A stretch of 64,000 nt of DNA from Phycisphaeraceae bacterium. Its GTDB lineage: Bacteria; Planctomycetota; Phycisphaerae; Phycisphaerales; Zrk34. Where the stretch lies: positions 1-64,000 of the forward strand of contig JANQQT010000292.1 of assembly GCA_028284925.1 (NCBI GenBank), in the 5' to 3' direction. How positions within the stretch are numbered: position 1 is the stretch's first letter; each line of letters starts with the position of its first letter. The translations under genes and the position numbers were made by a program. The notes under the pieces are model-generated. The model was not told the origin of the DNA and ran no database searches. It saw nothing but the letters and a program-made list of their open reading frames with translations. This document shows positions 16,792-59,154 of this stretch, in pieces.

Positions 16792-19745
16792 AACTGAACC
16801 GCCTTCTTCCTGAACCGAAGACGAACAGCCTCCGCAATGGTGTTGATGATGAATGTCATGACGAAAAGAACGAGCCCGACGAGGAACAGTATCCGGTAAT
16901 GCGTCGAGCCAACTTCAGCTTCCGGCAGCTCCACGGCAATGTTCGCCGAAAGAGTTCGCAAACCATTGAAAATATTGAATTCAAGGATCGGCGTATTCCC
17001 CGTCGCCATAAGCACAATCATGGTCTCACCCACCGCACGCCCCAAACCAATCATCAGGGCCGAAAACAACCCGCTCATGGCCGTGGGAACCACAATACGA
17101 ACCGCCGTCTGCCACGGAGTCGCCCCCGCACCAAGCGAGGCGCTGCGTAAATGCTCTGGAACTGCCGTAAGGGCGTCATCCGCAATCGTGTAGATCAACG
17201 GGATAATGGCAAAACCCATGACAAATCCCAGAATCATCGAGTTACCCTGAATATACGTTCCCGCCGGAGCAAAATTAATCCCCCAGAAACTCAGTTCCCC
17301 CCGAGGATCCAAACCCATCCCGTCAAACGAAAAACCGAAGAGCACGGCGAGCAAAATCGTCAACACGATGGCCGAACCAAACTTAATCAGATCAAGAAAC
17401 GCAACCTGAGATCGCCGCGTCAGCTTCTCCGAATAGCGAATAATCGGATTCACAAAACGACTCACAAGAAACGCCGCAATCAACGCCGACACAGGAAGCA
17501 TAAGAAGAACCCACCCGCCAACCGCACTGGCGTACGTCTTATCCTCCGGCGGATCAAGGGGATCAAACGAAACCCAGTCTCGAATGGAACCCGCAAACAT
17601 AAGTTCCTCCGCCAATGGCCCAATCACCCACGCAAGCAGAACACCCACCGCGAGCGGAATGAACATGATCAGCGGACGCCAGTTGCCCAGTGGCAGGGAT
17701 ATCCCCGTCGGAAGCATTTGCCATATCTGGGCAAAGAGCAAAAACGTTACCGGAATCAACAGAAAACTCGCCACGGCGACAGGCACAAACTCATTCACGA
17801 CCGGAGCCAGTACGAGCGCGGCGATAAACCCAAGAACGACGGATGGCAGCGAGGCCATCAGTTCGATCGTGGGTTTGATGACGGACTTGGCACGCTTGGT
17901 CAGGAACTCACTTGAGAAAATCGCGGCAAAGAGCGCGATGGGAGCTCCGAAGAGCATGGCATAAAAGGTAGCCTTGAGTGTACCGAATACGAGTGGAATT
18001 AGGCCATACTTTGGCTCGGCATCGTTGGCGCCGGAGGAAGACTGCCAGGTATGGGTGGGCGAATCGTAACCTTCATACCAGACGCGAGTGAAAAGAGCAC
18101 CCATCGACGCTTCGGGGTGAAGCGGATCCACGCCCGCTTTGAATACGCTGGAATCGGCGATCGCGATGACGCCATCCTGCTTCGGTGCGAAGACGATATG
18201 ATCAATGGGCTTGCCTTTGACGATCTGTGTGTAACCGAGTTCGCTTTCGCTGGTTGGATTAAACAGCCGGACGTGACCGTCGCCGAATCCGCAAAAGACG
18301 AGACGTGATCGCATGGACGGTGAAACACTCGTGAGAGGAGAGCCCGAAGTTCTGAGTGTCTTGGTCCGCGCGAAAACATGGTCGGCCTCTTCTTCGATAT
18401 TGCGATCAAACAGAAGCTTGTCTTTGACATCCTCGTTGAAATGAGCAAACTTGTCATCGCCTTCCTTGAGACGATATCGCACGGACCGTTTGACGAGGTC
18501 GTCAATGCGAAGCGCGAAGCCGCCAAACACCCCACCTTGATCGTCGCCCCACAGAAGCGTATTGCTGCCGAGCACCCAAGCCACTTTGGTGAGCCTTCGA
18601 TCTTTGGGGATAAGACGACCTGTTTCCGCGATGAACGGCTTTTCCTTGTTCTGAAAGTTCACCCTCAGCAACTCACCCGATTCCCACGCCGCGTAAATGT
18701 GAGAACCGGGGCCGTTGACGCCCAGAAACATTGGAGCGCCCGCCGCAAGAGGCTTGAACGGCAACTCAACGGGATCTTCATCGAAACTGACAGTCTTACC
18801 CCCTGTAAGAAAGTCATCCGTTTCCGTACCGCGCATCGCGGAGAGTTTAAGCCCATCCTTCTCATCGCCATGCACGGCGACGATCATCATGTTCGCGTCC
18901 TGCTGAATATGTCCGAGAGAAAGTACAGGCTTATCACCCAAACTGACATCGGTTACCGCTTCGACGTTAAGCCTAAGAAGTCGGTATTGGCCCTGAGCCA
19001 CATCGAGCGAGCCTTCCTGATACGGGATGGCCACCGCGGGAATTCGTTCCTTGTCCTCGAAACGTTCAGGATGATCCTCCCTGAACTTCTTCGTTTTGGC
19101 ATCCAGCTTGGCCAGAACCTCTTCAGGTACGGCTTCCTTGTTAATGTACTGGCCCTTGATGTCGTATTCGATCTTGATAAGGTGAACGGATCCGTCGTTC
19201 AATCCGAAAGCGGCGATCCGCGATTGCGTGGCGAATGAAGTGGATCGGATCTGGCCCGGCTCAAACAGTTTGTACTCCTTGATGAGCGTGCCGTCATCCA
19301 GCGCGTGCAATCGAATACGACCGTCTTTAAACAAGGCCCAGGACGTCTTCCTATATTCATCGACTTCGACGTGGACCGGTCCGGCCGAAACCCACGTGGC
19401 CGCTGTTTTGATGGGTGCGTCAAACTTCGCGGGATAGAAGAGCGGGATGACGACGGCTACCAAAAAGATACAAACACCCATCACCGCGATAATCGTTCCG
19501 ATCCCCCCAAAACTGATGAAGATGCGTGCCAGAATATCCGCAATCGCAACGCTCTTTTTGGTGGTTCGCCTTCTTGCGCGACCGGTAAACGCCCCGCCTT
19601 CAACCTTACCGGTCCCATTCGATTTCGAATCGATCCCCTTCTCAGGATGATCCGAATCACCGTGGCCCTGATCCTCTTGCATGCTCTCAGACGGACCGGA
19701 TGACTTTTGAAGTTCGTGTTCGGGTTGATCTGATATTCGACTCAT
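16788..19745 (-). CDS. pstC: Phosphate ABC transporter permease PstC with beta-propeller-like insert
   Basis: The 985-residue protein has an N-terminal cytoplasmic tail, a membrane segment (IISFG to VVIPLFYPAKF region, about 75-105) and a hydrophilic region of roughly 480 residues. That region has recurring four-strand patterns (SWALFKDGRIRLHALDDGT, AAFGLNDGSVHLIKI, LVFCGFGDGHVRLFNP) resembling a WD/PQQ-type propeller. The permease core (about 600-985) contains GFIAALVLAPVVNEF, AVPEHLRSASLGAGATPWQT and GLGRAVGETMIVLMATGNTP, the PstC EAA region. Ordinary PstC proteins have about 320 residues; propeller-bearing forms exist in other Gram-negative bacteria. A terminator-like hairpin precedes the gene, after pstS. 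Confidence 0.94.
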   Translation of the reverse strand: MSRISDQPEHELQKSSGPSESMQEDQGHGDSDHPEKGIDSKSNGTGKVEGGAFTGRARRRTTKKSVAIADILARIFISFGGIGTIIAVMGVCIFLVAVVIPLFYPAKFDAPIKTAATWVSAGPVHVEVDEYRKTSWALFKDGRIRLHALDDGTLIKEYKLFEPGQIRSTSFATQSRIAAFGLNDGSVHLIKIEYDIKGQYINKEAVPEEVLAKLDAKTKKFREDHPERFEDKERIPAVAIPYQEGSLDVAQGQYRLLRLNVEAVTDVSLGDKPVLSLGHIQQDANMMIVAVHGDEKDGLKLSAMRGTETDDFLTGGKTVSFDEDPVELPFKPLAAGAPMFLGVNGPGSHIYAAWESGELLRVNFQNKEKPFIAETGRLIPKDRRLTKVAWVLGSNTLLWGDDQGGVFGGFALRIDDLVKRSVRYRLKEGDDKFAHFNEDVKDKLLFDRNIEEEADHVFARTKTLRTSGSPLTSVSPSMRSRLVFCGFGDGHVRLFNPTSESELGYTQIVKGKPIDHIVFAPKQDGVIAIADSSVFKAGVDPLHPEASMGALFTRVWYEGYDSPTHTWQSSSGANDAEPKYGLIPLVFGTLKATFYAMLFGAPIALFAAIFSSEFLTKRAKSVIKPTIELMASLPSVVLGFIAALVLAPVVNEFVPVAVASFLLIPVTFLLFAQIWQMLPTGISLPLGNWRPLIMFIPLAVGVLLAWVIGPLAEELMFAGSIRDWVSFDPLDPPEDKTYASAVGGWVLLMLPVSALIAAFLVSRFVNPIIRYSEKLTRRSQVAFLDLIKFGSAIVLTILLAVLFGFSFDGMGLDPRGELSFWGINFAPAGTYIQGNSMILGFVMGFAIIPLIYTIADDALTAVPEHLRSASLGAGATPWQTAVRIVVPTAMSGLFSALMIGLGRAVGETMIVLMATGNTPILEFNIFNGLRTLSANIAVELPEAEVGSTHYRILFLVGLVLFVMTFIINTIAEAVRLRFRKKAVQL

Positions 19746-45430: not shown

Positions 45431-46681
45431 CTAGACATGATTCAAAAATGCTTGATAATGTTCAATGTCGCCTGCAATAAACTGACGTAATACTTCAAAA
45501 CTCGCATCAGCCTTCCAGATTGAACCGTGTTTCGGTCTCCATCCCATTGTTTGGCCGGGCCTTCCAGGCAATCCTTTGATGCCTAGGGCAATCGGTCCAG
45601 GCGACGAAACAAATACCTTCCTCTTTCCGACAAAGTATTTCCAAAGACGTAAATCGACAAACTTGTCGGTACTCTCGCAAACTGAATTCAGACTCTGCAA
45701 TACCGCCGATCGTCGAAATCCGGTCTGGCAAAGGGACGCGTGTCGCTCATTACCACATGGGCGGTAAAGCCGTTCACCGAGATGGTAGTAGAACGAGTGG
45801 CCTTCTCCGACTAACTCAAATCGATCCAAATGTTGACTCATCACTTCAAGATAATTCGGTGCATACCAGTCATCATCTTCGATGATGAGTACTTTCTCCG
45901 AAGCGACATGCGGAATCGCTTTCTTCAGATTGAGTGCCAGGGTGTGGGGCGGATCATCGGATCGAGGCAAACGACGAATGCGTTGCTGCCCCATTCGCAA
46001 TTCAGTTTCAGTTTTGCCGTCATCGACAACAATCCATTGAATCGTGCCTCGGAATGTCTGACGAGAAATCCATCTCTCACATAAACGCATAGGAAGCGGG
46101 CGGTCACCCGTTGGTGTGATTAGGGTCAAATCGACTGGCTCAGCGGTAATGAAGCGTAGTTGCGATTGGCGAGAACTTACAGAAGGCTTCCACTGACGCT
46201 CTTTAGGAATTGTACGATCCTCCACTCCTCTCGAACAAGCTCTCTTAGGCGTGGTAGGTTGATTCAAGCTAAGACGTGGCTTGCCATGTCGAGATGTTCT
46301 TTTCATTGCTGTGGTTTGTAAATTCTGTGGCCATTTCCGAAGACGACATGAATCCTTTGAAAAAATAATGGCTCGACGAGTTAAACTGCAATCCACATGA
46401 TGTTTGCCAATGCCAAGCCGTTTATCGCATTGCATGCAAATCCTTTTGCGATACTCCTCAATAGAGAGTAATCTCGACGATTGGTCTTCAGTTGTACACG
46501 GGATTTGATCGGTCCATTTTTTGAGAACACACCTTCCGCTCGCGAGCAAAATCATAGACTTTCGGTTCAAAGCACATCGCACATAATCATCTGAAGAACG
46601 ACGACAATGATCGCATTGCCGACATATTGACAGTCTAGCCTTAATAGCTTGCGACGAATGGTGAGAGTTTTTGACTTCCAT
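45431..46681 (-). CDS. Glycosyltransferase-like protein with two N-terminal Cys4 modules
   Basis: The 416-residue protein has two copies of a Cys4 module in its first 110 residues. Each is C-x2-C-x12-C-x13/14-C followed by VLKKW or RLRKW, with partial sequences ICRQCDHC, VRCALNRK, ICMQCDKR and VDCSLTRR. A basic linker leads to a GT-A-type domain from about 185: DLTLITPTGDRPLPMRLCE, IQWIVVDDGKT, EKVLIIEDDDWYAPNYLEVM (DxD-like EDDDW), then GHSFYYHLGERLYRPCGNER. That pattern is of family-2-like glycosyltransferases. The Cys modules look zinc-binding. The start is uncertain: a GTG four codons earlier is also possible. The gene is three bases past the next module protein and is surely co-transcribed with it. 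Confidence 0.78.
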   Translation of the reverse strand: MEVKNSHHSSQAIKARLSICRQCDHCRRSSDDYVRCALNRKSMILLASGRCVLKKWTDQIPCTTEDQSSRLLSIEEYRKRICMQCDKRLGIGKHHVDCSLTRRAIIFSKDSCRLRKWPQNLQTTAMKRTSRHGKPRLSLNQPTTPKRACSRGVEDRTIPKERQWKPSVSSRQSQLRFITAEPVDLTLITPTGDRPLPMRLCERWISRQTFRGTIQWIVVDDGKTETELRMGQQRIRRLPRSDDPPHTLALNLKKAIPHVASEKVLIIEDDDWYAPNYLEVMSQHLDRFELVGEGHSFYYHLGERLYRPCGNERHASLCQTGFRRSAVLQSLNSVCESTDKFVDLRLWKYFVGKRKVFVSSPGPIALGIKGLPGRPGQTMGWRPKHGSIWKADASFEVLRQFIAGDIEHYQAFLNHV

Positions 46682-46696
46682 ACTCACTTTCACTTT

Positions 46697-48247
46697 TTAC
46701 CGGCCGGGCTTTCGCTCGTCATACAGCCCCTGAGTTCTCTCATTTACCAAATCAATCATTCCCCACTCATCTTGAATCTTGGAAACCGCCTCCTCAAGGG
46801 GAATAAAGTCAAACGCCGTCAGAGCTGAATCAGGATTACAGTTGTGAACAAAAAACTCTTCTGATTCAAAGATCGGTCGCAGCTCAGTAAACCATTGCTG
46901 GAGTTTTCGGTACGTCGAATTATTGCCACGGAGAGAGCCGGATTTACGCTTCTGCTCGAAGTGATAGGTGTAATCTGATGACATCTTGAAATCCGCACCA
47001 AGTAGATACACGTTTCGGAAACCAAGGTAAAACAGAAGTCGCATCGCAACCAGCATCACAGATCGACCGCCACCCGCACTCGCCGAATTACCCCAGTTAA
47101 AAGAGTCCTCATACAACCACTGTTTTAGTCTGAAACGAGCATTTCTTCGATAAAAGAATACTGCTGGACAATCGCGAGCTCGTGTTTTTATAAATCGCCA
47201 TTGATCGGAATCAAAAATGAATTTGTCAGCATTTCCGATAGGGCAGAATTTAGTGATCAACGGATCGAGCCAAATGGATCTCAAAAAGTTTGCCGGTTTG
47301 TCTACGCACACCCACAAATGAGGACGAAATGTCTTCACTGAATTATTGATCCCCATCGTCAGAATGCCTGGATTTCGCAATAAGTCATGATCCACTCTCG
47401 CAAAACTCGGACCGCCGCAGATCAAGAATGCACTCCGCCCTTGGTATAGATTTTCCATTGCGACCGGCGTTGAGTCCGCTGTCATTATCAGGCGAGGCAT
47501 ACTTTTGCCTTGCCCCAATACAGCGACTTCCGCACCAAATTGATCTGCGTTGAATCGTGCTTCGTCCGTTTCATCCAATTGCTCGGAAATCGGATGACGC
47601 CTTCCAACTCCCATACTGCCACGACTCTGTAATCGCTCTGCATTTAGCAGCGTGTTCGGCCACTTTCTGAGAGGACATCTCCTACCATCCAGTCTTAACC
47701 ACTTTGATCTGGCGGCATCGCAACAAACCCGTTCACCCTCTAACCCCCTCTGATTATCGCAATTTCGACAAACCTCGCGTTTCAATATGCGAAGTTGATG
47801 GCTTGACCTAGATTCGGTTCGCCTCCTTCGAATTCCTTGAGGTCTGCGAGCCCGAATAAGGGCGTTCTCTGTACGATTTGAAGGGGTGCCATTGCCTGGC
47901 CATTTTCTCAGACTACACGTCCCAAATTCAATGGAAACGACGCCTTCACTGGTCGCGGAACAGAATACCGATCCATTATCATCGCCTCGAAATGAATCGC
48001 ATACTCGACAGATGTTTCGCCGAAATTCTTGACGAAGTCTCTCGTTTTGAATGTTGGTAATCTGACTCAATTCCAGAGATGATGACCATTTACGAAGAGG
48101 ACAGACATCATTCAGAAAGGAAATTGATCTGCCTCGAATGACCGCACATCGTACTTCTGTCGATGACTTATCGATAAAATTATCGCAAGTCTCGCATACA
48201 AGACGCCTGATCGACTGGACATTTGCGTTTTCCAGTTTGCTCTTCAT
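46697..48247 (-). CDS. Three Cys4 modules fused to a DUF115/sialyltransferase-like domain
   Basis: The 516-residue product begins with three copies of the same Cys4 module as its neighbour (LVCETCDNF, NICRVCDSF and EVCRNCDNQ, each closing with PLRKW or SLRKW). After a basic linker and residue 230 comes a Rossmann-like domain: SAFLICGGPSFARVDHDLLR, ILTMGINNSVKTFRPHLWVC, FNWGNSASAGGGRSVMLVAM and NVYLLGADFKMSSDYTYHF. GGPSF, NNS and GADF are shared with DUF115-like glycan enzymes and phage sugar-transfer proteins; the assignment is tentative. A longer start 21 codons upstream also has a ribosome site, but the chosen ATG gives the same distance to the first Cys as in the neighbour. Function unknown, probably glycan transfer. 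Confidence 0.75.
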   Translation of the reverse strand: MKSKLENANVQSIRRLVCETCDNFIDKSSTEVRCAVIRGRSISFLNDVCPLRKWSSSLELSQITNIQNERLRQEFRRNICRVCDSFRGDDNGSVFCSATSEGVVSIEFGTCSLRKWPGNGTPSNRTENALIRARRPQGIRRRRTESRSSHQLRILKREVCRNCDNQRGLEGERVCCDAARSKWLRLDGRRCPLRKWPNTLLNAERLQSRGSMGVGRRHPISEQLDETDEARFNADQFGAEVAVLGQGKSMPRLIMTADSTPVAMENLYQGRSAFLICGGPSFARVDHDLLRNPGILTMGINNSVKTFRPHLWVCVDKPANFLRSIWLDPLITKFCPIGNADKFIFDSDQWRFIKTRARDCPAVFFYRRNARFRLKQWLYEDSFNWGNSASAGGGRSVMLVAMRLLFYLGFRNVYLLGADFKMSSDYTYHFEQKRKSGSLRGNNSTYRKLQQWFTELRPIFESEEFFVHNCNPDSALTAFDFIPLEEAVSKIQDEWGMIDLVNERTQGLYDERKPGR

Positions 48248-48399
48248 GATCCCGATTCCGGTTAAAATACAAACGGCTTTATGCCCGATCAAAGAATGCC
48301 ACATTCTCACTCACCCCTATAAAGCATAATGGGAATTCAAGAATCTCGCAATACGTCGCCTACAGTGAAAAATGGCACTCACTGCACCTCGGCAATACC

Positions 48400-49050
48400 T
48401 CATACACCCCTCATCTCATGTCGCGGCCTTTCAGTCGGTCTCTTTTCGATAACCAGTACACTGTCATAGTAATGCAGGGAGTGGGTCGACCTTGTAAATT
48501 CCGACACGGAAAGTCGCTCCGGATCATGCGAGTGCCACGCATTGATATAGTCAATGAAATGCTTGCTGTACTCGATAAACGACTGATTATTGTTTACACC
48601 CCCACCATGACTTTTCCAGTAAGAAGTATGCAAATCCTCGCAAAGATAAACCCCGCAATCGTCGATATGCGGGAACAACTCCTCGAACGTAGCTATCTGC
48701 TGCGACATCCTGTGACCACCGTCATCGATAAGGATGTCAATGCGTGGCATTGTTTCAGCAAAGGACCGGAGAAACGCACGGTCTCCCTGATCGCCAATGA
48801 ATATTTTGATCTGAGGCTCTTCCAATTGTTTGCAGGCAGGGTCGATGTCAATACCAAATACCCTTGCCTGCTCCCCAAAATAGTGTTTCCACATCTGTAA
48901 CGAGCCACCATTCTGTACGCCGATCTCAACGACATTTACCGGCGTATGACGGAATCTGGAAAAGTGTCGCTCATAAATCTCAAAGTAATGCATCCACTTG
49001 TGAATGACGCGACCCGTGTTATTTTGAAAATAGTCTAGCAGTTCATTCAT
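48400..49050 (-). CDS. Class I SAM-dependent methyltransferase (CmcI-like)
   Basis: The 216-residue protein has the class I methyltransferase motifs NVVEIGVQNGGSLQMWKHYF (motif I), VFGIDIDPACKQL (motif II acidic residue), IDILIDDGGHRMSQQIATF (the DDGGH segment typical of the CmcI/rhamnosyl-O-methyltransferase group) and GVYLCEDLHTSYW. Family members methylate hydroxyl groups on sugars or antibiotics. GAGG lies eight bases before the ATG. It lies upstream of the Cys4-module genes on the same strand (152 bases), so it probably belongs to the same glycan-modifying cluster. Confidence 0.85.
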   Translation of the reverse strand: MNELLDYFQNNTGRVIHKWMHYFEIYERHFSRFRHTPVNVVEIGVQNGGSLQMWKHYFGEQARVFGIDIDPACKQLEEPQIKIFIGDQGDRAFLRSFAETMPRIDILIDDGGHRMSQQIATFEELFPHIDDCGVYLCEDLHTSYWKSHGGGVNNNQSFIEYSKHFIDYINAWHSHDPERLSVSEFTRSTHSLHYYDSVLVIEKRPTERPRHEMRGV

Positions 49051-49521: not shown

Positions 49522-50724
49522 ATGGCTGAAATCGGTAATTTTGTGGTAGGAGTTGCGACTTACAAGCGGCATCAACTCGCATCAGAATGTATCGCAAGCA
49601 TCTTGAACAGTGAGTTCCTGCCAGTCGAAATCTCCGTAGTAGACAATAGTGGGAAGTATGACCTTCCTTTTCGCAATCAGCGAATACCAATCACGGTCCA
49701 TCGACCGGGCCACAATAGCGGACGTGCTGCTACATGGAATTATCACCATCGATCATATGCACCAAGAGATGTTGTTCTGTTGGACGACGATCTGATCTTA
49801 AATCGAGATGTACTTGGGGCACTCGTAAATGATGCACGACCGTTCACGTGTGCAATGGCAGATCGGGTATGGTCGTGTTTTCGCCAGAAAGAGTCGATAT
49901 GGAAAGACGTCGGTGAGTATGACGAAGGGTTTTGGCCAACATTCTGGGATGATACCGACTATGAAGAACGTATGAAGCGTGCAGGATATGACGTGTGTGG
50001 CCAAAAGCTGGTTGTACAACATGCCGGCGTTCAGCGTCAGGCGTCTACGGCGACGAAAGATAATCCAGAGAAGACTCGATTTGAATTCAATCGAGCACGT
50101 TTTCAACGGAAGTGGGGTGAAGACAAAGAGTACGCAAATGCCTGGAATAGTAAGCAATACAACGAATTGGAATGGTACTACACTTGGGAATGCAACTCTC
50201 GGAGTGACATCAATGAACACCTACCCACGCTTCGACGGCTTTCATCGGAGTGTTCGCATGTAACAGAGTTTGGTGCGAGAACAGGCCGGTCGACAACGGC
50301 GTTGCTCTCCGCCCAGCCCGATCATTTGATCACCTATGACATCTCGCCACATCCCGATCTTGATAATCTATTTCATATGCGGGGCCAAACGCAGCTCACC
50401 GTCATTATTGCAGATACGGCGTTCAGCACAATTGATTCCACGGACATGCTGTTTATCGATACCCACCATTCCCATGAGCAGTTGAAACTTGAGCTCCATC
50501 ACAATCATGATCGCGTCCGAAAATACATAGTGATGCATGACACTGTAAAGTTCGGGGATGTCGCCGAAACGCCGCACAGATGGTTTGACAGTGGAGCAGG
50601 GCTCAATAAGGCCGTTAAGGAGTTTCTTGAGGAATTCCCGCAATGGAAGGTTGTGGAGCATCATAAAAACAATAACGGGTTGACTGTCATGTCACGAAGC
50701 CATCGTCCGGTTCGAGAATCCTAA
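49522..50724 (+). CDS. Family 2-type glycosyltransferase fused to a methyltransferase-like domain
   Basis: The 400-residue protein joins two domains. Residues 1-220 form a GT2-type domain: FVVGVATYKRHQLASECIAS, VEISVVDNSGKYD, PRDVVLLDDDLILNRDVLGA (DDD metal motif), AMADRVWSCFRQKESIWKDV, GYDVCGQKLVVQHAGVQRQ. Residues 245-400 resemble the CmcI-like methyltransferase group: CSHVTEFGARTGRSTTALLS (motif I), HLITYDISPHPDLDNL, DSTDMLFIDTHHSHEQLKLE and KYIVMHDTVKFGDVAETPHR. The fused domain keeps the FGARTGRST loop, so SAM binding is plausible. A ribosome site AGGGAT precedes the ATG. It is divergent from the methyltransferase and Cys4-module genes and may add and methylate a sugar on the same target. 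Confidence 0.82.
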   Translation: MAEIGNFVVGVATYKRHQLASECIASILNSEFLPVEISVVDNSGKYDLPFRNQRIPITVHRPGHNSGRAATWNYHHRSYAPRDVVLLDDDLILNRDVLGALVNDARPFTCAMADRVWSCFRQKESIWKDVGEYDEGFWPTFWDDTDYEERMKRAGYDVCGQKLVVQHAGVQRQASTATKDNPEKTRFEFNRARFQRKWGEDKEYANAWNSKQYNELEWYYTWECNSRSDINEHLPTLRRLSSECSHVTEFGARTGRSTTALLSAQPDHLITYDISPHPDLDNLFHMRGQTQLTVIIADTAFSTIDSTDMLFIDTHHSHEQLKLELHHNHDRVRKYIVMHDTVKFGDVAETPHRWFDSGAGLNKAVKEFLEEFPQWKVVEHHKNNNGLTVMSRSHRPVRES

Positions 50725-51204: not shown

Positions 51205-51921
51205 TCAATATCGCCAGTTCTCATGCCGCACGGGCAGGCGGTTTAGCACCAGTCTTCGTTGTTCCCAGTCGGGCATAAACTGATGCATCAACGCCTGAAA
51301 ACATTCATTGTGCGTCGGCTCCAAGATGTGAATCATCTCGTGAACCAATATGTACTCCAAGCACAAGGGCGGCTTTTTCGCAAGATCAGTATTCAGCCGA
51401 ATAGTCCTCGCCTGCGCGTTGCAACTTCCCCAGCGTGTTTTCATCCGTCGTACGTAAACGCCTGCGACCTCTACACCGACCCTCGGTACCCATCTTTCAA
51501 TTAACTCGCTCACAGCCATCTTAATTTGATTGCGATACCAACCTTCAACGATTTGCATACGTTTGGTCTCTTCGGAATCGGGACGGACCTGCAACACGAT
51601 GCGATTATGGCTCAATTCCACCGAAGGCGGCTTATCCAACTCAACCACTGATAACAGGTATCGCTTACCCCATACGTAATGGCTCTCTCTCTCCAAAAAC
51701 TCTCGTGGAGTTTCACGATCCTGACCCTGTAGTTTTCGTTGCTGTTGTTTGATCCAACCCAGCTTGGAGATTGCAAACAGGCGAATCGCATCCATATTCA
51801 TCCGTTGGGGGGCGGCGATACGAATACGACCCGTCGGCGGATGAACGCTCAAGTGGACGTTTTTAATGTCTTTCAACACAACGTCAACGGATACGTCACC
51901 AAGAAAAAGCTGCGAAGTCAT
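51205..51921 (-). CDS. YgjP/SprT-like M48-type metallopeptidase
   Basis: The 238-residue protein belongs to the YgjP (DUF45) family of small zinc hydrolases. The N-terminal half has KNVHLSVHPPTGRIRIAAPQ and GWIKQQQRKL; the catalytic part has RMKTRWGSCNAQARTIRLN and the zinc motif YILVHEMIHILEPTHNE (HExxH plus a third His ligand nearby), ending LMHQFMPDWEQRR. Its ATG overlaps the hsdR stop by one base (TGATG), so it is translated with the restriction operon. YgjP-like genes are recurrent neighbours of type I restriction genes; their role there is unclear. The frame continues past the stop for 47 codons without another stop. Confidence 0.88.
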   Translation of the reverse strand: MTSQLFLGDVSVDVVLKDIKNVHLSVHPPTGRIRIAAPQRMNMDAIRLFAISKLGWIKQQQRKLQGQDRETPREFLERESHYVWGKRYLLSVVELDKPPSVELSHNRIVLQVRPDSEETKRMQIVEGWYRNQIKMAVSELIERWVPRVGVEVAGVYVRRMKTRWGSCNAQARTIRLNTDLAKKPPLCLEYILVHEMIHILEPTHNECFQALMHQFMPDWEQRRLVLNRLPVRHENWRY

Positions 51922-54900
51922 CAATATTCACACCGACCCTTTATGACCAAGAAAAGCTCTTCCACACGCGCCTCATCATCTAGGATTTCGAAAAGAGCGG
52001 CCTTAATCTCTTCCTCTTTCGCTTGTACACCCCGCCACGCATCTGGCCGAACTGATTTCACGGTCTCATCTACCTTCAGCGCAAGTTCAACGAGTCGTTC
52101 GTCATCCATTTCATCCCTATCCATCTGCGCTAATTTGTTGTAGATGGCTCGACGTTCGGGCAAATCAAGACTTTCCGGTGTATCGTCCGTTTTCCCCAAA
52201 TCCAATGTTCTAGCGAGTTCGGCGATACGTTTCAAATACTCCTCATACTCTATCGCTCTGGCCTTACGATCCGCAATAACTTCATTCAGCAGTGTGGACA
52301 TCCTCTCGTAAAATGCGGGATCGCTCATACGTTCCTTGATGATCGTGCTGCGAATGTTATTCTCAATCGTCTCAGCTACAGCCTGCTCATTTCCCATTAA
52401 CCCACCCAGCCTCGCGGCGATGGCGTCGGCAATACCAGTCTTGACAATGAGGTCGAGGAGACTTACCCCGTCGAACGGCGATATCTTTCGCGGTTCGTCC
52501 GCCTCAATGTATGTATCAATTAAATGCCGCATGTCCGCTTCGTACGCCTTTGCATCCAATGTCTCACCTGCGGCATTGCGAATCGTGTCCCTAAGCTTCA
52601 CATAATGATCGAGAAGCTTCCTAATTCGCGTCACATCGTCTTCGCTATACCCTACTCCTTCCATTTCATCTGAGATATTCGCAAACGCCCGCACGAACGA
52701 AACAACCGCCTTATACAAAGATGCCCGTTGCGGTTCTCGCTCTTGAAGGTCCGTAGGGATTTCAGTGTTTCCACAAAAATAATGAATATGTTGCAACTCC
52801 TGTTTCGGCGGTTCAACCGGCTCGCAAATCAAGGCGAGCGTTTCAATCGCAGTGTCCAACCGTTCCCGACCTTTGCGTAACCGGTTTTGCAACAACACTT
52901 CAGGACACGGCCCTTCGGCGGAATCATCCAACTCCGATGTATATACCGCGATAGCATTCTCCACCTTCTTAAACAAATCCTTGTAATCGACGATATAGCC
53001 AAAATCCTTGTCTTCGCCGTCCAGACGATTGGTACGGCAGATTGCCTGAAACAGCCCATGATCCTGCATCGACTTGTCAATGTACAAATATGTACAGGAT
53101 GGCGCATCGAAACCGGTCAGCAACTTGTCCACTACAACCAGGAGCTGCATGTTGGCCGGCTCCTTCGTAAACAACTCTTTTGCTTCCTCCTCATAAACCT
53201 CCGTTCGCGTCATGCCCGGTCGAGCCTCAACACTCTCCAGCAACGCCGCATACGTCTTATATATGAACTGCTTGTCCGTTTCCGTATTTGCACCAACCTC
53301 TTCAAGCGTGACATCACCCGCCTGCGGGTTATATGAAGTCACCAAAGCACACTTACCCTTGAACGGGGTTTTCTGGAGCAAATCAAAATACTTGCACGCT
53401 TCGTAGATACTCCGCGCCACAAGAATTGCGTTACCACGCTCGCTGGATAATCGCGGCTTGACACTAAAATCAAAAATAATATCAGCGATTACACGATCCA
53501 TGCGTGACCGTGAACTCAGCACTGTTTGTAATGTGCCCCACTTTTTTCTAAGTTCATCCCTCTGCCAGTCATTCAGCCCGGCCGTCTTTGCCTCAAACCA
53601 CGCATCAATCTTATCCTGGGAGCCAAGCCGCTGATCGATATCACGGGCCTCATACACCAAATCCAATATCACGTTGTCCTCGACGCCCTCGCTGAATTTG
53701 TACGTGTGAATGTACTTGCCAAAGACCTCCAGACTCGTCCGTCTGTCCCTTCTGAGGAGAGGAGTGCCAGTAAAACCGATGAATACGGCGTTGGGCATCA
53801 TCGCTGTCATCAGCTTGTGGAGTCGCCCGCTTTGTGTTCTGTGGCATTCATCGACGAAGACGAAGATTTCACCAACGGTATTAGTGGGTTGGGATTCCAG
53901 TTCCTTGATATAAGCGGCAAACGCCTGATCGCTCATCGCTGTTTCAGCATTTCGGAGGCCGAACTTTTGAACCAATGAACAAAGTAATCGCGGAGCAGGT
54001 TCAGCCAGATGCCTCATCAGTTCGTCGCGACTGCCGCACCGCTCAATGTTCTCACCTGAATCAGTAAACACACGCTGGATCTGCTTATCCAGCGCATCAC
54101 GGTCGGTGATAATCGCGACACGGGCCGTGGGATTGTTCTCTAGAATCCACTTCGCCAGCAACACCATCACGATACTCTTGCCGCTACCCTGCGTGTGCCA
54201 GATAATCCCGCCGCGCTTTTCGCGGACGTGTTGCTGGGCGGCTTTGATACCGAAGTATTGATGCACGCGCGGTAACTTCTTCACGCCGCCATCAAACAAC
54301 ACAAAATCGTGCATCAGCTCAATGAGGCGTCGCTTTTCGCACATTTTCAGGAGGTATTTATCCAGCTTCGAGCGCGTGTTGTCGTGGATATCCTCTTTCC
54401 ATGTAAGAAAGTATTTTTCCTCCGTGCCGATCGTACCATAGCGGAGGCCTTCCGAATCATTCCCGGCAAAAATGAACTGAATCGTACTGAAAAACCACGC
54501 GTTAAATTCAGGCTGCTGATTGGAAAGATTCTGCCGAATACCCTCGGCGATGCTGACGCGACTGTTTTTTAACTCGATAACTCCGATGGCAATCCCGTTA
54601 ACGTATATCACCAGATCAGGCCGTCGATTGTGTGCGCCCTTCAAGGTGACCTCCTCGGCAATAGCAAAGTTGTTTTCCTCCGGTTCGTCCCAGTTGATCA
54701 GGAACACCTGCTCGGTGGACCTTCCCGCTTCGACCTTAACGGGAATACCGTAGCGGAGGAGTTTGTAGACCTCATGGTTATTGGCATAAAGGCCCCGGTT
54801 GCCGTTGTTGGCCTCTGTGGTCAGTTTATAGATCGCCGCGTTGATTTGGGCAGGTGAATAACCGCCCTTGTCGCGGAGGTAGTCTGTGAGCAGGTTTTGT

Positions 54901-55019
54901 TCAATATTGGAGTTGTCGTGGTCGCTGCGATCGCCGAGGAAGCGATATCCGAGTTCGGCGCAAAACAGCTCTACTATTCGACGCTGTGTTTCCCGCTCTG
55001 ATTGACCTATTTCGTTCAT
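51921..55019 (-). CDS. hsdR: Type I restriction enzyme R subunit
   Basis: The 1032-residue motor subunit cuts unmodified DNA after translocation. The N-terminal nuclease domain has a PD-(D/E)xK-type core: HNRRPDLVIYVNGIAIGVIE, ending in ELKNS. The helicase domain follows with GGIIWHTQGSGKSIVMVLLA (Walker A, about residue 290), IFVFVDECHRTQSGRLHKLM (DECH box), FIGFTGTPLL and later LLVVVDKLLTGFDAPSCTYL and FQAICRTNRL (motif VI). The C-terminal region is helical and charged, as in HsdR proteins that bind the modification enzyme. Full length with all motifs visible. It follows the small ORF by three bases and overlaps the metallopeptidase gene. Confidence 0.95.
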   Translation of the reverse strand: MNEIGQSERETQRRIVELFCAELGYRFLGDRSDHDNSNIEQNLLTDYLRDKGGYSPAQINAAIYKLTTEANNGNRGLYANNHEVYKLLRYGIPVKVEAGRSTEQVFLINWDEPEENNFAIAEEVTLKGAHNRRPDLVIYVNGIAIGVIELKNSRVSIAEGIRQNLSNQQPEFNAWFFSTIQFIFAGNDSEGLRYGTIGTEEKYFLTWKEDIHDNTRSKLDKYLLKMCEKRRLIELMHDFVLFDGGVKKLPRVHQYFGIKAAQQHVREKRGGIIWHTQGSGKSIVMVLLAKWILENNPTARVAIITDRDALDKQIQRVFTDSGENIERCGSRDELMRHLAEPAPRLLCSLVQKFGLRNAETAMSDQAFAAYIKELESQPTNTVGEIFVFVDECHRTQSGRLHKLMTAMMPNAVFIGFTGTPLLRRDRRTSLEVFGKYIHTYKFSEGVEDNVILDLVYEARDIDQRLGSQDKIDAWFEAKTAGLNDWQRDELRKKWGTLQTVLSSRSRMDRVIADIIFDFSVKPRLSSERGNAILVARSIYEACKYFDLLQKTPFKGKCALVTSYNPQAGDVTLEEVGANTETDKQFIYKTYAALLESVEARPGMTRTEVYEEEAKELFTKEPANMQLLVVVDKLLTGFDAPSCTYLYIDKSMQDHGLFQAICRTNRLDGEDKDFGYIVDYKDLFKKVENAIAVYTSELDDSAEGPCPEVLLQNRLRKGRERLDTAIETLALICEPVEPPKQELQHIHYFCGNTEIPTDLQEREPQRASLYKAVVSFVRAFANISDEMEGVGYSEDDVTRIRKLLDHYVKLRDTIRNAAGETLDAKAYEADMRHLIDTYIEADEPRKISPFDGVSLLDLIVKTGIADAIAARLGGLMGNEQAVAETIENNIRSTIIKERMSDPAFYERMSTLLNEVIADRKARAIEYEEYLKRIAELARTLDLGKTDDTPESLDLPERRAIYNKLAQMDRDEMDDERLVELALKVDETVKSVRPDAWRGVQAKEEEIKAALFEILDDEARVEELFLVIKGRCEY

Positions 55020-55022
55020 GGA

Positions 55023-55472
55023 CTAATCCCGAACACAAGCAACCTCGATATATGTGCGAATACGTCGATTCGACCAATTCCCGGCCTCGCGATATACATA
55101 CTCCCGCGCAATATAATTGATGATGTCAGCGGCGTACATCGGGTTCGGCTCACGATTTTCAGATTCCTCACATTGCCAGTCCGTACCTTCGCCGGTCTGA
55201 AGCCAGATCGCCTGGGCCTCATGTTCGGCCAGCTTTTCCACTTGCTCCGCTACACTGCGGTGAATCACATCCTCGTAAGCATCCCAGTAAACAGTTTGGT
55301 CATATTGAATCTGCACGCAGACCTCATCCCACGCAGTCTTCAGGCCGGAATCATCTCCCAGCAACCCCGCCGGTAGTTTCAACATCTCACGCATGACCTT
55401 GCGCGCAATGCGCTCCCCGACCTCTTTCGCCACCGCCCGCACAATCGATAATGCGCTTAGCCTGTCGGTCAT
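55023..55472 (-). CDS. Small unknown ORF between hsdS and hsdR
   Basis: The 149-residue protein is translationally coupled to hsdS (ATGA overlap) and ends three bases before hsdR, so it is made with the restriction complex. It is hydrophilic and mostly helical (VAKEVGERIARKVMREMLKL, DSGLKTAWDEVCVQIQYDQT, EDVIHRSVAEQVEKLAEHEA), with a C-terminal YINYIAREYV-like part and VACVRD end. No catalytic motif or membrane segment is visible, and I do not recognise the family. A longer frame extends 52 codons into hsdS but has no initiation signal. A regulatory or assembly role is possible; similar small genes in restriction operons include antirestriction-like or stability factors. Confidence 0.75.
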   Translation of the reverse strand: MTDRLSALSIVRAVAKEVGERIARKVMREMLKLPAGLLGDDSGLKTAWDEVCVQIQYDQTVYWDAYEDVIHRSVAEQVEKLAEHEAQAIWLQTGEGTDWQCEESENREPNPMYAADIINYIAREYVYREAGNWSNRRIRTYIEVACVRD

Positions 55473-56731
55473 ACCAATCGAATCCTGCCGGTGAGGAGTT
55501 GCTGCATCATGCCTTGTTTGATAGCGCGGGCTTTGGTCAGTTTGGTTTGGAGCGCAGTGATTTCGGTGTCCATATCGGAGAGGACTTCGGCGATGGCAAC
55601 CTGTTCCGGATATGGCGGAAGTGTGCACTCTAAACTACCCAAAGCTTGCGCACCAATATGAACTATCGCGTCCCCTTGTCCCTTGCTTGCTTTCTGGGCG
55701 TTGATACTCGCCGTGTTGAGGTAATAACCTAAAAACAAAGCGCTCGCCGATCGAGGTCGCAGAACGACAATGTCACCGCCTGCGTAGGCCTCGCAATCAT
55801 GCACAAAAGCAATACATTTTCCAATCTCGTCACGAGTTTCACCTGATCCTGCAAAGAGAAGGTCACCTCTTTTTAACAAAGTAGCCGTCATCGCTACCTC
55901 TCGGGAAATCCACGAAAAGAAATTCCGAACATAATTGCTGTGCCGTGTATATAGTTCGCCGTATCGAACGCACGGAAGAGAACCACTTCGGGCATCATCT
56001 TTATGTACGCCTCTCCCTTTTAAAAAAGAGCCTATGTCACCGAGTCGCTTCTTCTCCCACTTCTCCTCAAACCTTGGCAGTCTTGTCTCGCCGGTGAGGA
56101 GTTGTTGCATGGCGGCTTGTTTGAGGTGGCGTTTCTTGGCGAGAAGTTGCTCCAGCGATTCGATCCACGCATCCGCATCCCCCAACGCCCCCGCAATCGC
56201 CTCCTGCTCTGCAAGGGTGGGAGGAAGAGGGATTGGGTAGGCCCTGACCTTCTGCCCATTGATATTTGCTTGGCCTACCGCGAGACTAAGCACCTTGGCA
56301 CTATGCCTTTTGGAAAACTCTGTATTCAGAATATAGTTGAGGTATCTGGAATCCAAGACTGAGTTGTCGGCATTAATTCGGATGAGGTATCCGGCAAAAA
56401 TAGCTGGGCGCTCACCATTATAAATTGCACACTTGCCGACGAGATCAATCGTGTTCGTTCTGTTGAATAATACATCTCCTTGATGAAGCTTGTACTTCCT
56501 GATCTCAGAATCGTCGTCTGTATAAACCAAGTCCTTCCAATCAATCATCCCACCTTGAAGGTTCCCCATTCGTAGAACTGGTGTATGACCTTTCGGATTC
56601 GATTTTGCCGAAGTACCATATTCAACAGAAGTGACCAATCGTCCGAGTGGTATCAAAGTCCAATCGCTCGGTATTACACCTATTTCCGTAGATTTGTAAT
56701 CGACCGACATGTCAGGCGAAGCCGCAGTCAT
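55469..56731 (-). CDS. hsdS: Type I restriction enzyme specificity subunit
   Basis: The 420-residue protein has two target-recognition domains, each followed by a conserved helix. TRD1 opens with YKSTEIGVIPSDWTLIPLGR and TRD2 with FEEKWEKKRLGDIGSFLKGR. The two helices are internal repeats: ALGDADAWIESLEQLLAKKR, ending MQQLLTGETRL, and VLSDMDTEITALQTKLTKAR, ending MQQLLTGRIRL. These set the distance between the two half-sites of the DNA target. The sequence specificity cannot be read from the protein. It overlaps hsdM and the small ORF by ATGA at both ends. Confidence 0.94.
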   Translation of the reverse strand: MTAASPDMSVDYKSTEIGVIPSDWTLIPLGRLVTSVEYGTSAKSNPKGHTPVLRMGNLQGGMIDWKDLVYTDDDSEIRKYKLHQGDVLFNRTNTIDLVGKCAIYNGERPAIFAGYLIRINADNSVLDSRYLNYILNTEFSKRHSAKVLSLAVGQANINGQKVRAYPIPLPPTLAEQEAIAGALGDADAWIESLEQLLAKKRHLKQAAMQQLLTGETRLPRFEEKWEKKRLGDIGSFLKGRGVHKDDARSGSLPCVRYGELYTRHSNYVRNFFSWISREVAMTATLLKRGDLLFAGSGETRDEIGKCIAFVHDCEAYAGGDIVVLRPRSASALFLGYYLNTASINAQKASKGQGDAIVHIGAQALGSLECTLPPYPEQVAIAEVLSDMDTEITALQTKLTKARAIKQGMMQQLLTGRIRLV

Positions 56732-59154
56732 TTCACGGCTCCTAGAAGTGTTGACTTTTCAATAACAAATCCCATACGTTCGAGGTGGTCGCTTACCTTC
56801 ACCTCAACTTCTGCCACACGATTTGACAACTCCGGCAACCGCGACTCATACCGCTCGGCCAACTCCTTTACTCGTTGTGTTATCGCCTGACTTATGCGAT
56901 CTATCTCCCCATGAATAGCCCCATCAAGCGTCGCGATCCATTTGTCATCCACGACGAGCGGTTTGATTTCATCCTCACTCAACTCCGCATATTTGGCGTA
57001 GACCTTGCCATCAAGTTCCGCCTCAGCTCTCCTCAGCTCCTTCTTTAACTTCGCCTCTTTCGCGTGGCATTTGAGCCACTGTTTCAGGATTGCGACGTCG
57101 TCCGGTGAATCGAGGTCACCATTGATCTCATCGGAAACGGCGGATTTGTTGATCTTGTCCAATTTCCCGAAGGCTCCATCCTCACCGCTGTGTTCCTCTT
57201 CCAGTTCCATGCGTTGGGCGGCGATTTGCTCTACCTCGGCCTGCAATTGATCGATCGCAGCCTGCTCCTTCGCGAAATACCGAGAGACAATCAATCCTTT
57301 TGGAATCAGATCACACGCCCAACCCTTGTCCTTCTCCTTGCCCTTCTTGTCCTTTACAAGCACGCGATACGTCTCGGCCTTCCAGCCCTCGGCGGCTATC
57401 TGATAAATATCATCCTGCATCACCTCATCCCAGTAGTCCATGAGGTGCTGATACACATCATAATGATTGATCAGGGGCTGCCTGGTGTAATGGGTGAGCA
57501 GGCCCTCGGAAAGTTCTTCGATAATCTGCTTGGGATGACAACCCGCTTCAAGCTCGCGTAATTCTGCTGCTATGCGTGTGCGCCATTTGGCAAAGTGGCG
57601 ATTCATGCGCTTGATAAACGCGGCAAACTCCGAGTGTCCATAAATCGCGGATTTAATGTCAGCCTTGTCGATTGCCAGGTCAACATACCCCGGTCGGTTA
57701 TCCGTAAACAATGCCTCTCGCAATGCGGGGCAAACCTTCCAATAGCGAGAGAGCGAATCGATATCAGAAACGGGAATGCCGCCCTGCAGGTGACCGGCGA
57801 TATCGTGGATATCCTCCGCCTGTCGATTGTCGATGTAGCGGGGAAGGTTCAGGTTAAAGTCATTGGATTCGATTTCATCGACGCTGATGATTCTGGAATA
57901 GCCGGGTATCTCTTCGCGCTTACTAAAGACATCCACGATCTTGTGAATGTCTTGCGCGCGGAGTCGATTTTTAGGACCATCCTTGATGAAGCCCTCGCTG
58001 GCGTCGACCATAAAGATACCGCGCCGTGCGGTGGCGTCTTTCTTATCGACGATGATGATGCAGGCGGGGATGCCTGTACCGTAGAAGAGATTGGCGGGGA
58101 GGCCAATGATGCCTTTGATGTAGTTCTTGCGAATGAGGTTGCGTCGAATGTCCGCTTCGGCGTTGCCCCTGAACAGGACGCCGTGAGGGAGGATACATGC
58201 CCCTGTGCCAGTGCTGCGGAGTGAGCGGACGATGTGGAGTAGGTAGGCGTAATCGCCCTGTTTGGCCGGGGGTACGCCGAAGGAAGTGAAACGAGCGTGG
58301 GGATCGTTGAGCGGATCGAGACCGGTAGTCCAGCGCTTATCGGAGAAGGGAGGATTGGCAACAACATAGTCGAAGGTCTTGACCGTATCGCCGCTGAGAA
58401 ATTTGGGCGAGGAGAGTGTATTACCCTGGACGATGGTGGCGGTCGGATTGTTGTGGAGGATCATATTCATGCGAGCGAGGCCGCTGGTGGTGGCGTCTTT
58501 CTCCTGCCCATATAGAGTAACTTCCGACCGTGCTTCATCCCCTACTTTCAGCAACAATGAGCCCGAACCACACGTAGGGTCATACACTGTGGTCATTCTG
58601 GTGGTTTTTGCCTCGCGGATACCCAAGATTTGCGCCATGATGCGACTAACTTCGGCGGGAGTGTAGAACTGGCCCTTGCTCTTGCCGCTTTCGGTGGCGA
58701 AGTGGCGCATAAGATATTCGTAGGCGTCGCCGAGGATGTCATCGCCTTCAGCGCGGTTTTTGGAGAAGTCCAGCGACTTGCTTTCAAAGATGGCGATGAG
58801 ATCGGTGAGGCGATCGACCTTTTCTTTTCCATCGCCGAGTTTGACGGCATCGTTGAAATCAGGAAAGTCAGATTGGGATAGCTGTTGGTTCGCTGCGGCG
58901 AGGGGGGCAATGATTTTCTTGTTGATTTGATCGCCGATATCAGATTTACCCTTTAGAGCGACCATGGCGTTGAAACTTGCCCCTTTGGGGATTTTGATCG
59001 GCGTGAAGGATTTGCTTTCATATTTGTCGGTGATGTACTTGATGAAAAGGAAGGAGAGGACGTAATCCTTGTACTGGCTGGCATCCATCCCGCCGCGAAG
59101 GGCATCGCAGCCGGACCATAGAGAGGAATAGAGTTCTGATTTCTTTAGAGCCAT
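56728..59154 (-). CDS. hsdM: Type I restriction enzyme methyltransferase subunit
   Basis: The 808-residue N6-adenine methyltransferase has the HsdM N-terminal helical domain (KKSELYSSLWSGCDALRGGM, SFLFIKYITDKYE), SAM motif I VYDPTCGSGSLLLKVGDEAR and catalytic motif IV FDYVVANPPFSDKRWT, followed by CILPHGVLFRGNAEADIR and KGIIGLPANLFYGTGIPACI. The C-terminal 300 residues extend beyond a typical ~500-residue HsdM and are helical and coiled-coil-like (QLQAEVEQIAAQRMELEEEH, KELRRAEAELDGKVYAKYAE); long forms of this kind are known. First gene of the restriction operon. Confidence 0.95.
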   Translation of the reverse strand: MALKKSELYSSLWSGCDALRGGMDASQYKDYVLSFLFIKYITDKYESKSFTPIKIPKGASFNAMVALKGKSDIGDQINKKIIAPLAAANQQLSQSDFPDFNDAVKLGDGKEKVDRLTDLIAIFESKSLDFSKNRAEGDDILGDAYEYLMRHFATESGKSKGQFYTPAEVSRIMAQILGIREAKTTRMTTVYDPTCGSGSLLLKVGDEARSEVTLYGQEKDATTSGLARMNMILHNNPTATIVQGNTLSSPKFLSGDTVKTFDYVVANPPFSDKRWTTGLDPLNDPHARFTSFGVPPAKQGDYAYLLHIVRSLRSTGTGACILPHGVLFRGNAEADIRRNLIRKNYIKGIIGLPANLFYGTGIPACIIIVDKKDATARRGIFMVDASEGFIKDGPKNRLRAQDIHKIVDVFSKREEIPGYSRIISVDEIESNDFNLNLPRYIDNRQAEDIHDIAGHLQGGIPVSDIDSLSRYWKVCPALREALFTDNRPGYVDLAIDKADIKSAIYGHSEFAAFIKRMNRHFAKWRTRIAAELRELEAGCHPKQIIEELSEGLLTHYTRQPLINHYDVYQHLMDYWDEVMQDDIYQIAAEGWKAETYRVLVKDKKGKEKDKGWACDLIPKGLIVSRYFAKEQAAIDQLQAEVEQIAAQRMELEEEHSGEDGAFGKLDKINKSAVSDEINGDLDSPDDVAILKQWLKCHAKEAKLKKELRRAEAELDGKVYAKYAELSEDEIKPLVVDDKWIATLDGAIHGEIDRISQAITQRVKELAERYESRLPELSNRVAEVEVKVSDHLERMGFVIEKSTLLGAVK

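What the first reader, a model, noticed from the sequence alone, without database searches (positions are those of the whole stretch)
45431..48247. Five copies of an apparently undescribed Cys4 module fused to two different glycan enzymes
Two adjacent genes carry two and three copies of C-x2-C-x12-C-x13/14-C-x-L-[RK]-K-W, always at the N-terminus and followed by a basic linker, then a GT-A-like or DUF115-like domain. The spacing is almost constant and the LRKW tail is invariant, so this is a real domain. I do not recognise it. It is probably a zinc ribbon that recruits both enzymes to the same target.
Basis: partly seen in the sequence, partly recalled or inferred. Interest (0 to 1): 0.7.

Follow-up and report, generated by a model that had tools for sequence, protein, structure and literature searches.

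The report
Phage-type zinc modules on glycan enzymes
Two neighbouring planctomycete genes each join a sugar-transferring enzyme to repeated copies of a small four-cysteine tag; the tag is a stripped-down form of a very common phage domain of unknown function, and phages keep the tag and the same enzymes together in their tail-gene regions, which suggests that the tag aims the enzymes at a tail or surface protein.

Summary
Five Cys4 modules (C-x2-C-x12-C-x13/14-C-x-L-[RK]-K-W) lie in two co-oriented minus-strand genes 3 nt apart: three in P0002 (48310-46697), two in P0001 (46693-45431). None arises in 40,000 shuffled copies.

The module has relatives: it is a divergent, Cys-poor form of the phage module PF19668/DUF6171 = phrog_13558, with the same length and CPLxKW tail but without the CxxCGC hairpin. 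A pattern built from its spacing hits at least 120 viral contigs.

Fusion to glycan enzymes recurs: GT25, GT9, DUF6734, a Stealth-like domain and, in a phage contig, the same GT42-like domain as P0002. Both catalytic domains have over a hundred phage relatives; 61 of 80 fetched P0002 relatives sit in one conserved tail cluster. Module, P0002-type and P0001-type genes occur side by side, unfused, in G087:C81 and viral contig L405.

Best reading: a phage-derived, tail-associated glycosyltransferase cassette whose zinc modules dock the enzymes on a tail, tip or surface protein; in the window probably the adjacent poly-Ser RHS-like protein. Origin and association are shown; zinc, docking and acceptor are inferred.

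The parts
46697..48310 (-). P0002: three Cys4 modules, basic linkers, GT42-like (MptE/DUF115-like) catalytic domain (537 aa; ATG at 48247 is an alternative start)
48086..48196 (-). Cys4 module, copy 1 of P0002 (CETCDNFIDKSSTEVRCAVIRGRSISFLNDVCPLRKW)
   Evidence: 25.5 bits to the HMM of viral modules
47900..48010 (-). Cys4 module, copy 2 of P0002
   Evidence: 21.4 bits
47660..47770 (-). Cys4 module, copy 3 of P0002
   Evidence: 12.5 bits, (within the range of the best shuffles when taken alone)
46697..47533 (-). P0002 catalytic region, GT42-like; phage relatives up to 55% identical
45431..46693 (-). P0001: two Cys4 modules, basic linker, GT2-like (GT-A) catalytic domain (420 aa)
46514..46624 (-). 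Cys4 module, copy 1 of P0001
   Evidence: 22.8 bits
46331..46438 (-). Cys4 module, copy 2 of P0001 (13-residue spacing before the last Cys)
   Evidence: 17.1 bits
45431..46189 (-). P0001 catalytic region with VVDDG and EDDD motifs; 47% identical to the gene in G087:C81
38932..45066 (-). RHS/YD-like 2044-aa protein with 12 runs of three or more Ser, directly downstream: candidate acceptor (inferred)
   Evidence: no Pfam match
48400..49050 (-). Methyltransferase-like gene directly upstream (PF13578; phrog_21658), possibly part of the cassette
   Evidence: a methyltransferase-like gene also precedes the P0002-type gene in prophages of G014, G035 and G061

Best explanation
The pair is a chromosomal derivative of a phage tail-associated glycosyltransferase cassette. 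The Cys4 modules are reduced, probably single-zinc, versions of the phage DUF6171/phrog_13558 module and act as protein-protein docking tags. Two or three tags per enzyme raise avidity and bring a GT42-like transferase (P0002) and a GT2-like transferase (P0001) to one target, where they act in sequence. In phages the target is most likely a tail, tail-tip or fibre protein; in the window it is most likely the adjacent poly-Ser RHS-like protein. Shown here: homology of the module, recurrent fusion to glycan enzymes, phage relatives of both catalytic families, their place in tail-gene regions, and side-by-side versions of the same trio. Inferred: metal binding, docking, order of action, and the identity of the acceptor.
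For: Module homology: spacing pattern hits at least 120 viral contigs; those proteins match PF19668 and phrog_13558; four of five window copies score above, or at least level with, the best of 20,000 shuffles, P0002 as a whole 40.1 bits. Recurrent fusion: GT25, GT9, DUF6734, phrog_7999 Stealth-like, P0002-type in phage contig L298 with two modules, GT-like in L375 (123). Tail setting: 61 of 80 viral P0002 relatives hold the same tape-measure/tail genes; prophages of G035, G014, G061 (78); G048 module-DUF6734 gene at the end of a head-to-tail run; G048 module-Stealth gene beside terminase and portal. Trio: G087:C81, L405; P0001-type and P0002-type domains in one ORF in L315. Ser-rich ORFs near P0002-type genes 51/161 against 11/431 (101).
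Against: No measurement of metal, binding or glycosylation. The Ser-rich enrichment is dominated by one tail lineage and is absent for P0001-type genes. A crude test found no enrichment of large or Ser-rich neighbours for the stand-alone module in viral contigs. Some modules are fused to non-glycan proteins. The window genome has no syntenic tail gene, so the phage link is by descent, not by present context.
Confidence: 0.55

Rival explanations
1. The cassette modifies the host's own surface polysaccharide (as in phage seroconversion or superinfection exclusion), and the module anchors the enzymes to a membrane or glycan-assembly partner rather than to a tail or RHS protein.
For: The G004 module-GT25 gene opens a 12-kb run of glycosyltransferase, methyltransferase, pyruvyl transferase and sulfotransferase-like genes that looks like polysaccharide synthesis. 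In S-SSM7 and Sf-FS3 the stand-alone module gene lies near sugar-nucleotide epimerase genes.
Against: The conserved place of P0002-type genes is inside tail clusters, not among genes acting early or expressed from a prophage in lysogeny; no polymerase or flippase was seen beside the window pair.
Confidence: 0.2
2. The module has no targeting role: it is a small structural cap or a nucleic-acid-binding zinc element that merely accompanies phage enzymes.
For: Basic linkers around the modules could bind nucleic acid; stand-alone copies in Stenotrophomonas and Rhizobium phages lie in regions without tail or glycan genes.
Against: Module-free homologues of the P0002 domain are common and evidently fold without it; the module is joined to at least five unrelated glycan-enzyme families.
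Confidence: 0.15
3. The four cysteines hold an iron-sulphur cluster or form disulphides rather than a zinc site.
For: The best, but insignificant, PDB fold matches of the module model are high-potential iron-sulphur proteins (E 1.4 and above).
Against: The matches are far from significance; the parent phage family has six or more Cys with a CxxCGC hairpin typical of zinc ribbons; the N-termini of P0001 and P0002 show no obvious signal peptide, so an oxidising place is unlikely (read by eye).
Confidence: 0.05

Closest known systems
PF19668 DUF6171 / phrog_13558 (small phage Cys-rich protein, no known function)
   Same: Same 37-residue length from first Cys to Trp, CxxC-[DE] start, CPLxKW tail, preceding Arg; phage and planctomycete distribution
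   Different: Window copies keep only four of the six Cys and lack CxxCGC; tandem copies; fused in front of glycan enzymes; below the Pfam cut-off
GT42 sialyltransferases (CstI/CstII) and MptE-like/DUF115
   Same: Predicted fold of the P0002 catalytic region resembles CstII (Foldseek E 2e-4); GPS motif of the phage family is invariant
   Different: About 14% identity, TM-score 0.41-0.44, below the Pfam cut-offs; donor and acceptor unknown
GT2 / GT-A glycosyltransferases
   Same: P0001 has DDG and EDDD motifs and a weak PF00535 match; a phage homologue (L315) passes the cut-off
   Different: Window protein itself is just below the cut-off; part of a phage subfamily
Phage virion glycosylation (mycobacteriophage Che8 and relatives)
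   Same: Phage-encoded transferases that modify virion proteins
   Different: No DUF6171-type module reported in what I could read; the primary paper is not held and was known only through PMC11256854
Serine-rich repeat glycoprotein loci of Gram-positive bacteria (PMC6973325)
   Same: Works-like model: dedicated transferases encoded beside a Ser-rich surface protein
   Different: No accessory Sec genes seen; different enzymes; planctomycete/phage setting; acceptor not proven

Membership tests
PF19668 DUF6171 | Score above the Pfam cut-off (27 bits) | tested here: not met
   No Pfam hit for the window module or the whole proteins; canonical viral copies reach 25.6-34.8 bits and L405 42.5
PF19668 DUF6171 | Six-Cys pattern with CxxCGC hairpin | tested here: not met
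   Only four Cys in all five copies
PF19668 DUF6171 | CxxC start, CPxxKW tail and overall length | tested here: met
   Gap-free alignment to 26 viral copies, except one single-residue gap in one window copy
phrog_13558 | Profile match | tested here: inconclusive
   P0002 E 0.011 over profile positions 8-69 of 69, P0001 E 0.25; profile also rings in unrelated control genomes at loose E-values
Zinc ribbon | Binds Zn through four Cys | not testable with these tools
   Invariant Cys only; model coordinates not available; no significant fold match
GT42 (P0002 catalytic domain) | Fold and sequence similarity to CstI/CstII | tested here: inconclusive
   Foldseek E 2e-4 but TM 0.41-0.44; profile E 0.0028 to 9c08; CST-I Pfam below cut-off in a homologue
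GT2 (P0001 catalytic domain) | PF00535 above cut-off | tested here: not met
   21.7 bits against 23.3 for the window protein; homologue L315 37.3 bits
GT2 (P0001 catalytic domain) | GT-A acidic motifs | tested here: met
   DDG and EDDD: the second D of DDG, its G and all of EDDD are invariant in four sequences
Virion/tail glycosylation system | Glycan on a tail or virion protein made by these enzymes | not testable with these tools
   Only gene context is available

The most novel reading that the evidence does not exclude
DUF6171-type modules, common small phage proteins without a known function, are a general address tag that brings cytoplasmic glycosyltransferases to phage tail-tip or fibre proteins, encoded either as a separate adaptor or fused to the enzyme; planctomycetes have taken over the tag, reduced it to four cysteines and use it to glycosylate giant poly-Ser RHS-like surface proteins.
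Probability: 0.3. Interest if true: 0.8.

Novelty: new variant of a known kind. Interest (0 to 1): 0.58.

Why it matters
DUF6171/phrog_13558 is widespread in phages and has no assigned function; no paper in the library searched mentions DUF6171. Its fusion to many different glycan enzymes, and its place beside tail genes, give a testable role: an adaptor for targeted glycosylation of tail or surface proteins. It would also link planctomycete Ser-rich RHS-like proteins to a phage-derived modification cassette.

Tried and rejected
Phage GenBank records searched with the full window proteins: nothing informative. First viral scan with P0002 alone: no relatives; a family alignment was needed. PDB by sequence and by fold, and viral fold models, gave no significant relative of the module; the weak factor X hits are cysteine-composition noise. 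A pattern for Cys-poor modules in the genome contigs gave one true hit, a Phycisphaeraceae contig of the same length as G081:C29, and one hit in a Desulfobulbus gene that looks like chance; the single viral hit L212 was not confirmed as a gene. Cys-rich neighbours are not significantly enriched for either catalytic family, so a 'Cys-rich acceptor' rule was dropped. Ser-rich neighbours are not a feature of P0001-type genes. The idea that the window locus is itself a prophage: no syntenic tail gene in this genome and no tail-gene match in the window. At 400 genomes per search only 18 candidates per genome were scored, so the counts are lower bounds.

Full report
WHAT IS THERE. The two genes are on the minus strand: P0002 (48310-46697, 537 aa, three modules) and P0001 (46693-45431, 420 aa, two modules), 3 nt apart. 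The motif C-x2-C-x12-C-x13/14-C-x-L-[RK]-K-W occurs five times in the six frames of the window, always here, and never in 40,000 shuffled copies of the proteins. No other copy of comparable score is in the whole genome.

WHAT THE MODULE IS. PHROGs gives a weak but nearly full-length match to phrog_13558 (E 0.011). Of the 80 loci read, all but one (L128, with a stop inside) encode R-x-x-[IV]-C-x2-C-[DE]-x9-C-x2-C-G-C-x12-C-P-L-x-K-W or close variants. My own estimate of chance matches to the pattern in the collection is below one. These phage proteins match PF19668 DUF6171 (E 2e-8 to 2e-5) and phrog_13558 (E 3e-13 to 9e-17). The window module has the same 37-residue length from first Cys to Trp (36 in one copy) but only four Cys: the CxxCGC hairpin is gone. 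In the alignment its third Cys falls near the hairpin; because relatives in G048 and G081 have shifted hairpins, which hairpin Cys it corresponds to is open. An HMM of 75 viral modules scores the five copies 25.5, 22.8, 21.4, 17.1 and 12.5 bits; the best of 20,000 shuffles scores 14.3, so the fifth copy is identified by its similarity to the other four, not on its own. P0002 as a whole scores 40.1. It is a divergent relative below the Pfam cut-off, and I do not file it as a DUF6171 member. The Cys4-only form is rare: besides the window, one copy in G004 of the same family; an exact pattern over the genome contigs gave no further true Cys4-only copy.

WHAT IT IS FUSED TO. In related genomes the module is joined to GT25 (G004), GT9 (G081), DUF6734 with the module at the C-terminus (G048) and a Stealth-like domain matching phrog_7999 (G048). 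In viral contigs, L298 carries two modules followed by a P0002-type domain (47% identical), a GH130-like stretch and a GT2-like end, and L375 carries a module on a protein that looks like a glycosyltransferase by eye but has no Pfam match, next to a P0001-type gene. There are non-glycan settings too: two G048 proteins join the module to a twin-arginine-like stretch and Cys-rich repeats, and G033 carries many small module proteins.

WHERE THE ENZYMES COME FROM. The P0002 catalytic region has a CstII/GT42-like predicted fold (pLDDT 89.6; Foldseek E 2e-4, TM 0.41-0.44; profile to sialyltransferase 9c08 E 0.0028). Module-free homologues, most about 45% identical, occur in the relatives searched (17 of 101 genomes with a match, the window's own included). 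In G035, G014 and G061 they follow a prophage tail cluster whose genes match those that precede the module gene in G033 (tape measure confirmed by PHROGs). A profile scan found 119 viral relatives, the best at 55% identity; 61 of the 80 fetched hold the same tape-measure and tail genes. The catalytic region of P0001 has 360 viral relatives.

THE SAME TRIO SIDE BY SIDE. G087:C81 has, on one strand and in order, a Ser/Gly/Cys-rich protein, a 166-aa module protein, a P0002-type gene with an added domain, and a P0001-type gene (47% identical), the last three with overlapping ends. Viral contig L405 has a DUF6171 protein (E 9e-11), then P0002-type and P0001-type genes. L315 has P0001-type and P0002-type domains in one ORF. 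So the three parts belong together; the window shows them fused.

TAIL CONTEXT. In G048 the DUF6734-module gene ends a run from a head protease/capsid protein through tape measure and two tail genes to a Cys-rich protein; another module-glycan gene of G048 lies in a cassette with terminase and portal. In annotated phages the stand-alone module gene is next to or near tail fibre, adhesin, lectin-like, tail or baseplate genes in S-SCSM2R, syn9, S-CBS2, ct2os315, S-SRM01, PSS2, S-LBS1, S-CRES3 and Leptospira CZ214; near sugar-nucleotide or 2OG-oxygenase genes in S-SSM7, S-B64 and Sf-FS3; and near neither in Moby and RHph_TM30. This is a reading of 14 records, not a statistic; a crude test in viral contigs gave no enrichment of large or Ser-rich neighbours for the stand-alone module.

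LIKELY TARGET. Ser-rich ORFs (14% Ser or more) lie within 1.5 kb of P0002-type genes in 51 of 161 cases, against 11 of 431 farther away. Most come from one tail lineage, so the p-value is not to be taken at face value, but L291, L297/L300 (an ORF of 1782 aa with 68% Ser in L297), L298 and L343 are other contexts. P0001-type genes show no such neighbours. In the window, the 2044-aa RHS-like protein just downstream has 12 runs of three or more Ser and is the only window ORF of 150 aa or more with runs of four. In G081 a 2199-aa protein with a poly-Ser start lies one small gene away from module-GT9. The acceptor is an inference from position and composition.

MECHANISM. Most likely the modules are zinc-stabilised docking tags that bring two transferases to one tail, tip or surface protein; copy number would raise avidity. 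Zinc is inferred from the invariant cysteines and the parent family; the module model (pLDDT 85.9; the five models range from 45.8 to 85.9) has no significant fold match. Rivals: modification of host surface glycans, a structural or nucleic-acid role, and an iron-sulphur cluster.

COMPARISON WITH THE KNOWN. Virion glycosylation by phage enzymes is known for mycobacteriophage capsids (as cited in PMC11256854; the primary paper is not held). Dedicated transferases beside Ser-rich adhesins are known in Gram-positive bacteria (PMC6973325, abstract). I found neither linked to this module; the library holds no paper that mentions DUF6171.

Noticed in passing
L405:267-2984, L375:4624-7383, L392:4759-6738 (viral contigs): Phage glycosyltransferases of the P0001 neighbourhood carry another Cys-containing N-terminal stretch (GPGTxL..LL...G....CPC......MD..G...C), different from the Cys4 module: possibly a second kind of docking domain.
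   Followed up: no
L297:2-5350 (viral contig): ORF of 1782 aa with 68% Ser directly upstream of a P0002-type gene.
   Followed up: partly
L047:3002-5014 and 16587-18101 (G048): Two proteins with the module followed by a twin-arginine-like stretch (LTRRHFIS) in mid-protein and then Cys-rich repeats.
   Followed up: no
G033 (L050, L051, L056, L057, L074): 16 matches to phrog_13558 in one genome; the copies read repeat a pair of a Cys-rich gene and a small module gene, one of them at the end of a tail cluster.
   Followed up: partly
L278:10080-11516 (G014 prophage): The Ser/Gly-rich protein after the P0002-type gene continues into a stretch that resembles a Hint/intein start (NCLLFGTLVRLADGRVTPIENL).
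   Followed up: no
window 49522-50724: Plus-strand gene with a GT2 domain and a methyltransferase-like domain, divergent from the pair; may belong to the same cassette.
   Followed up: no
window 51205-59154: Run of minus-strand genes that looks like a type I restriction-modification locus by eye (HsdR-like 1032 aa, HsdS-like 420 aa, HsdM-like 808 aa) with a small metallopeptidase-like gene; not checked against a library.
   Followed up: no
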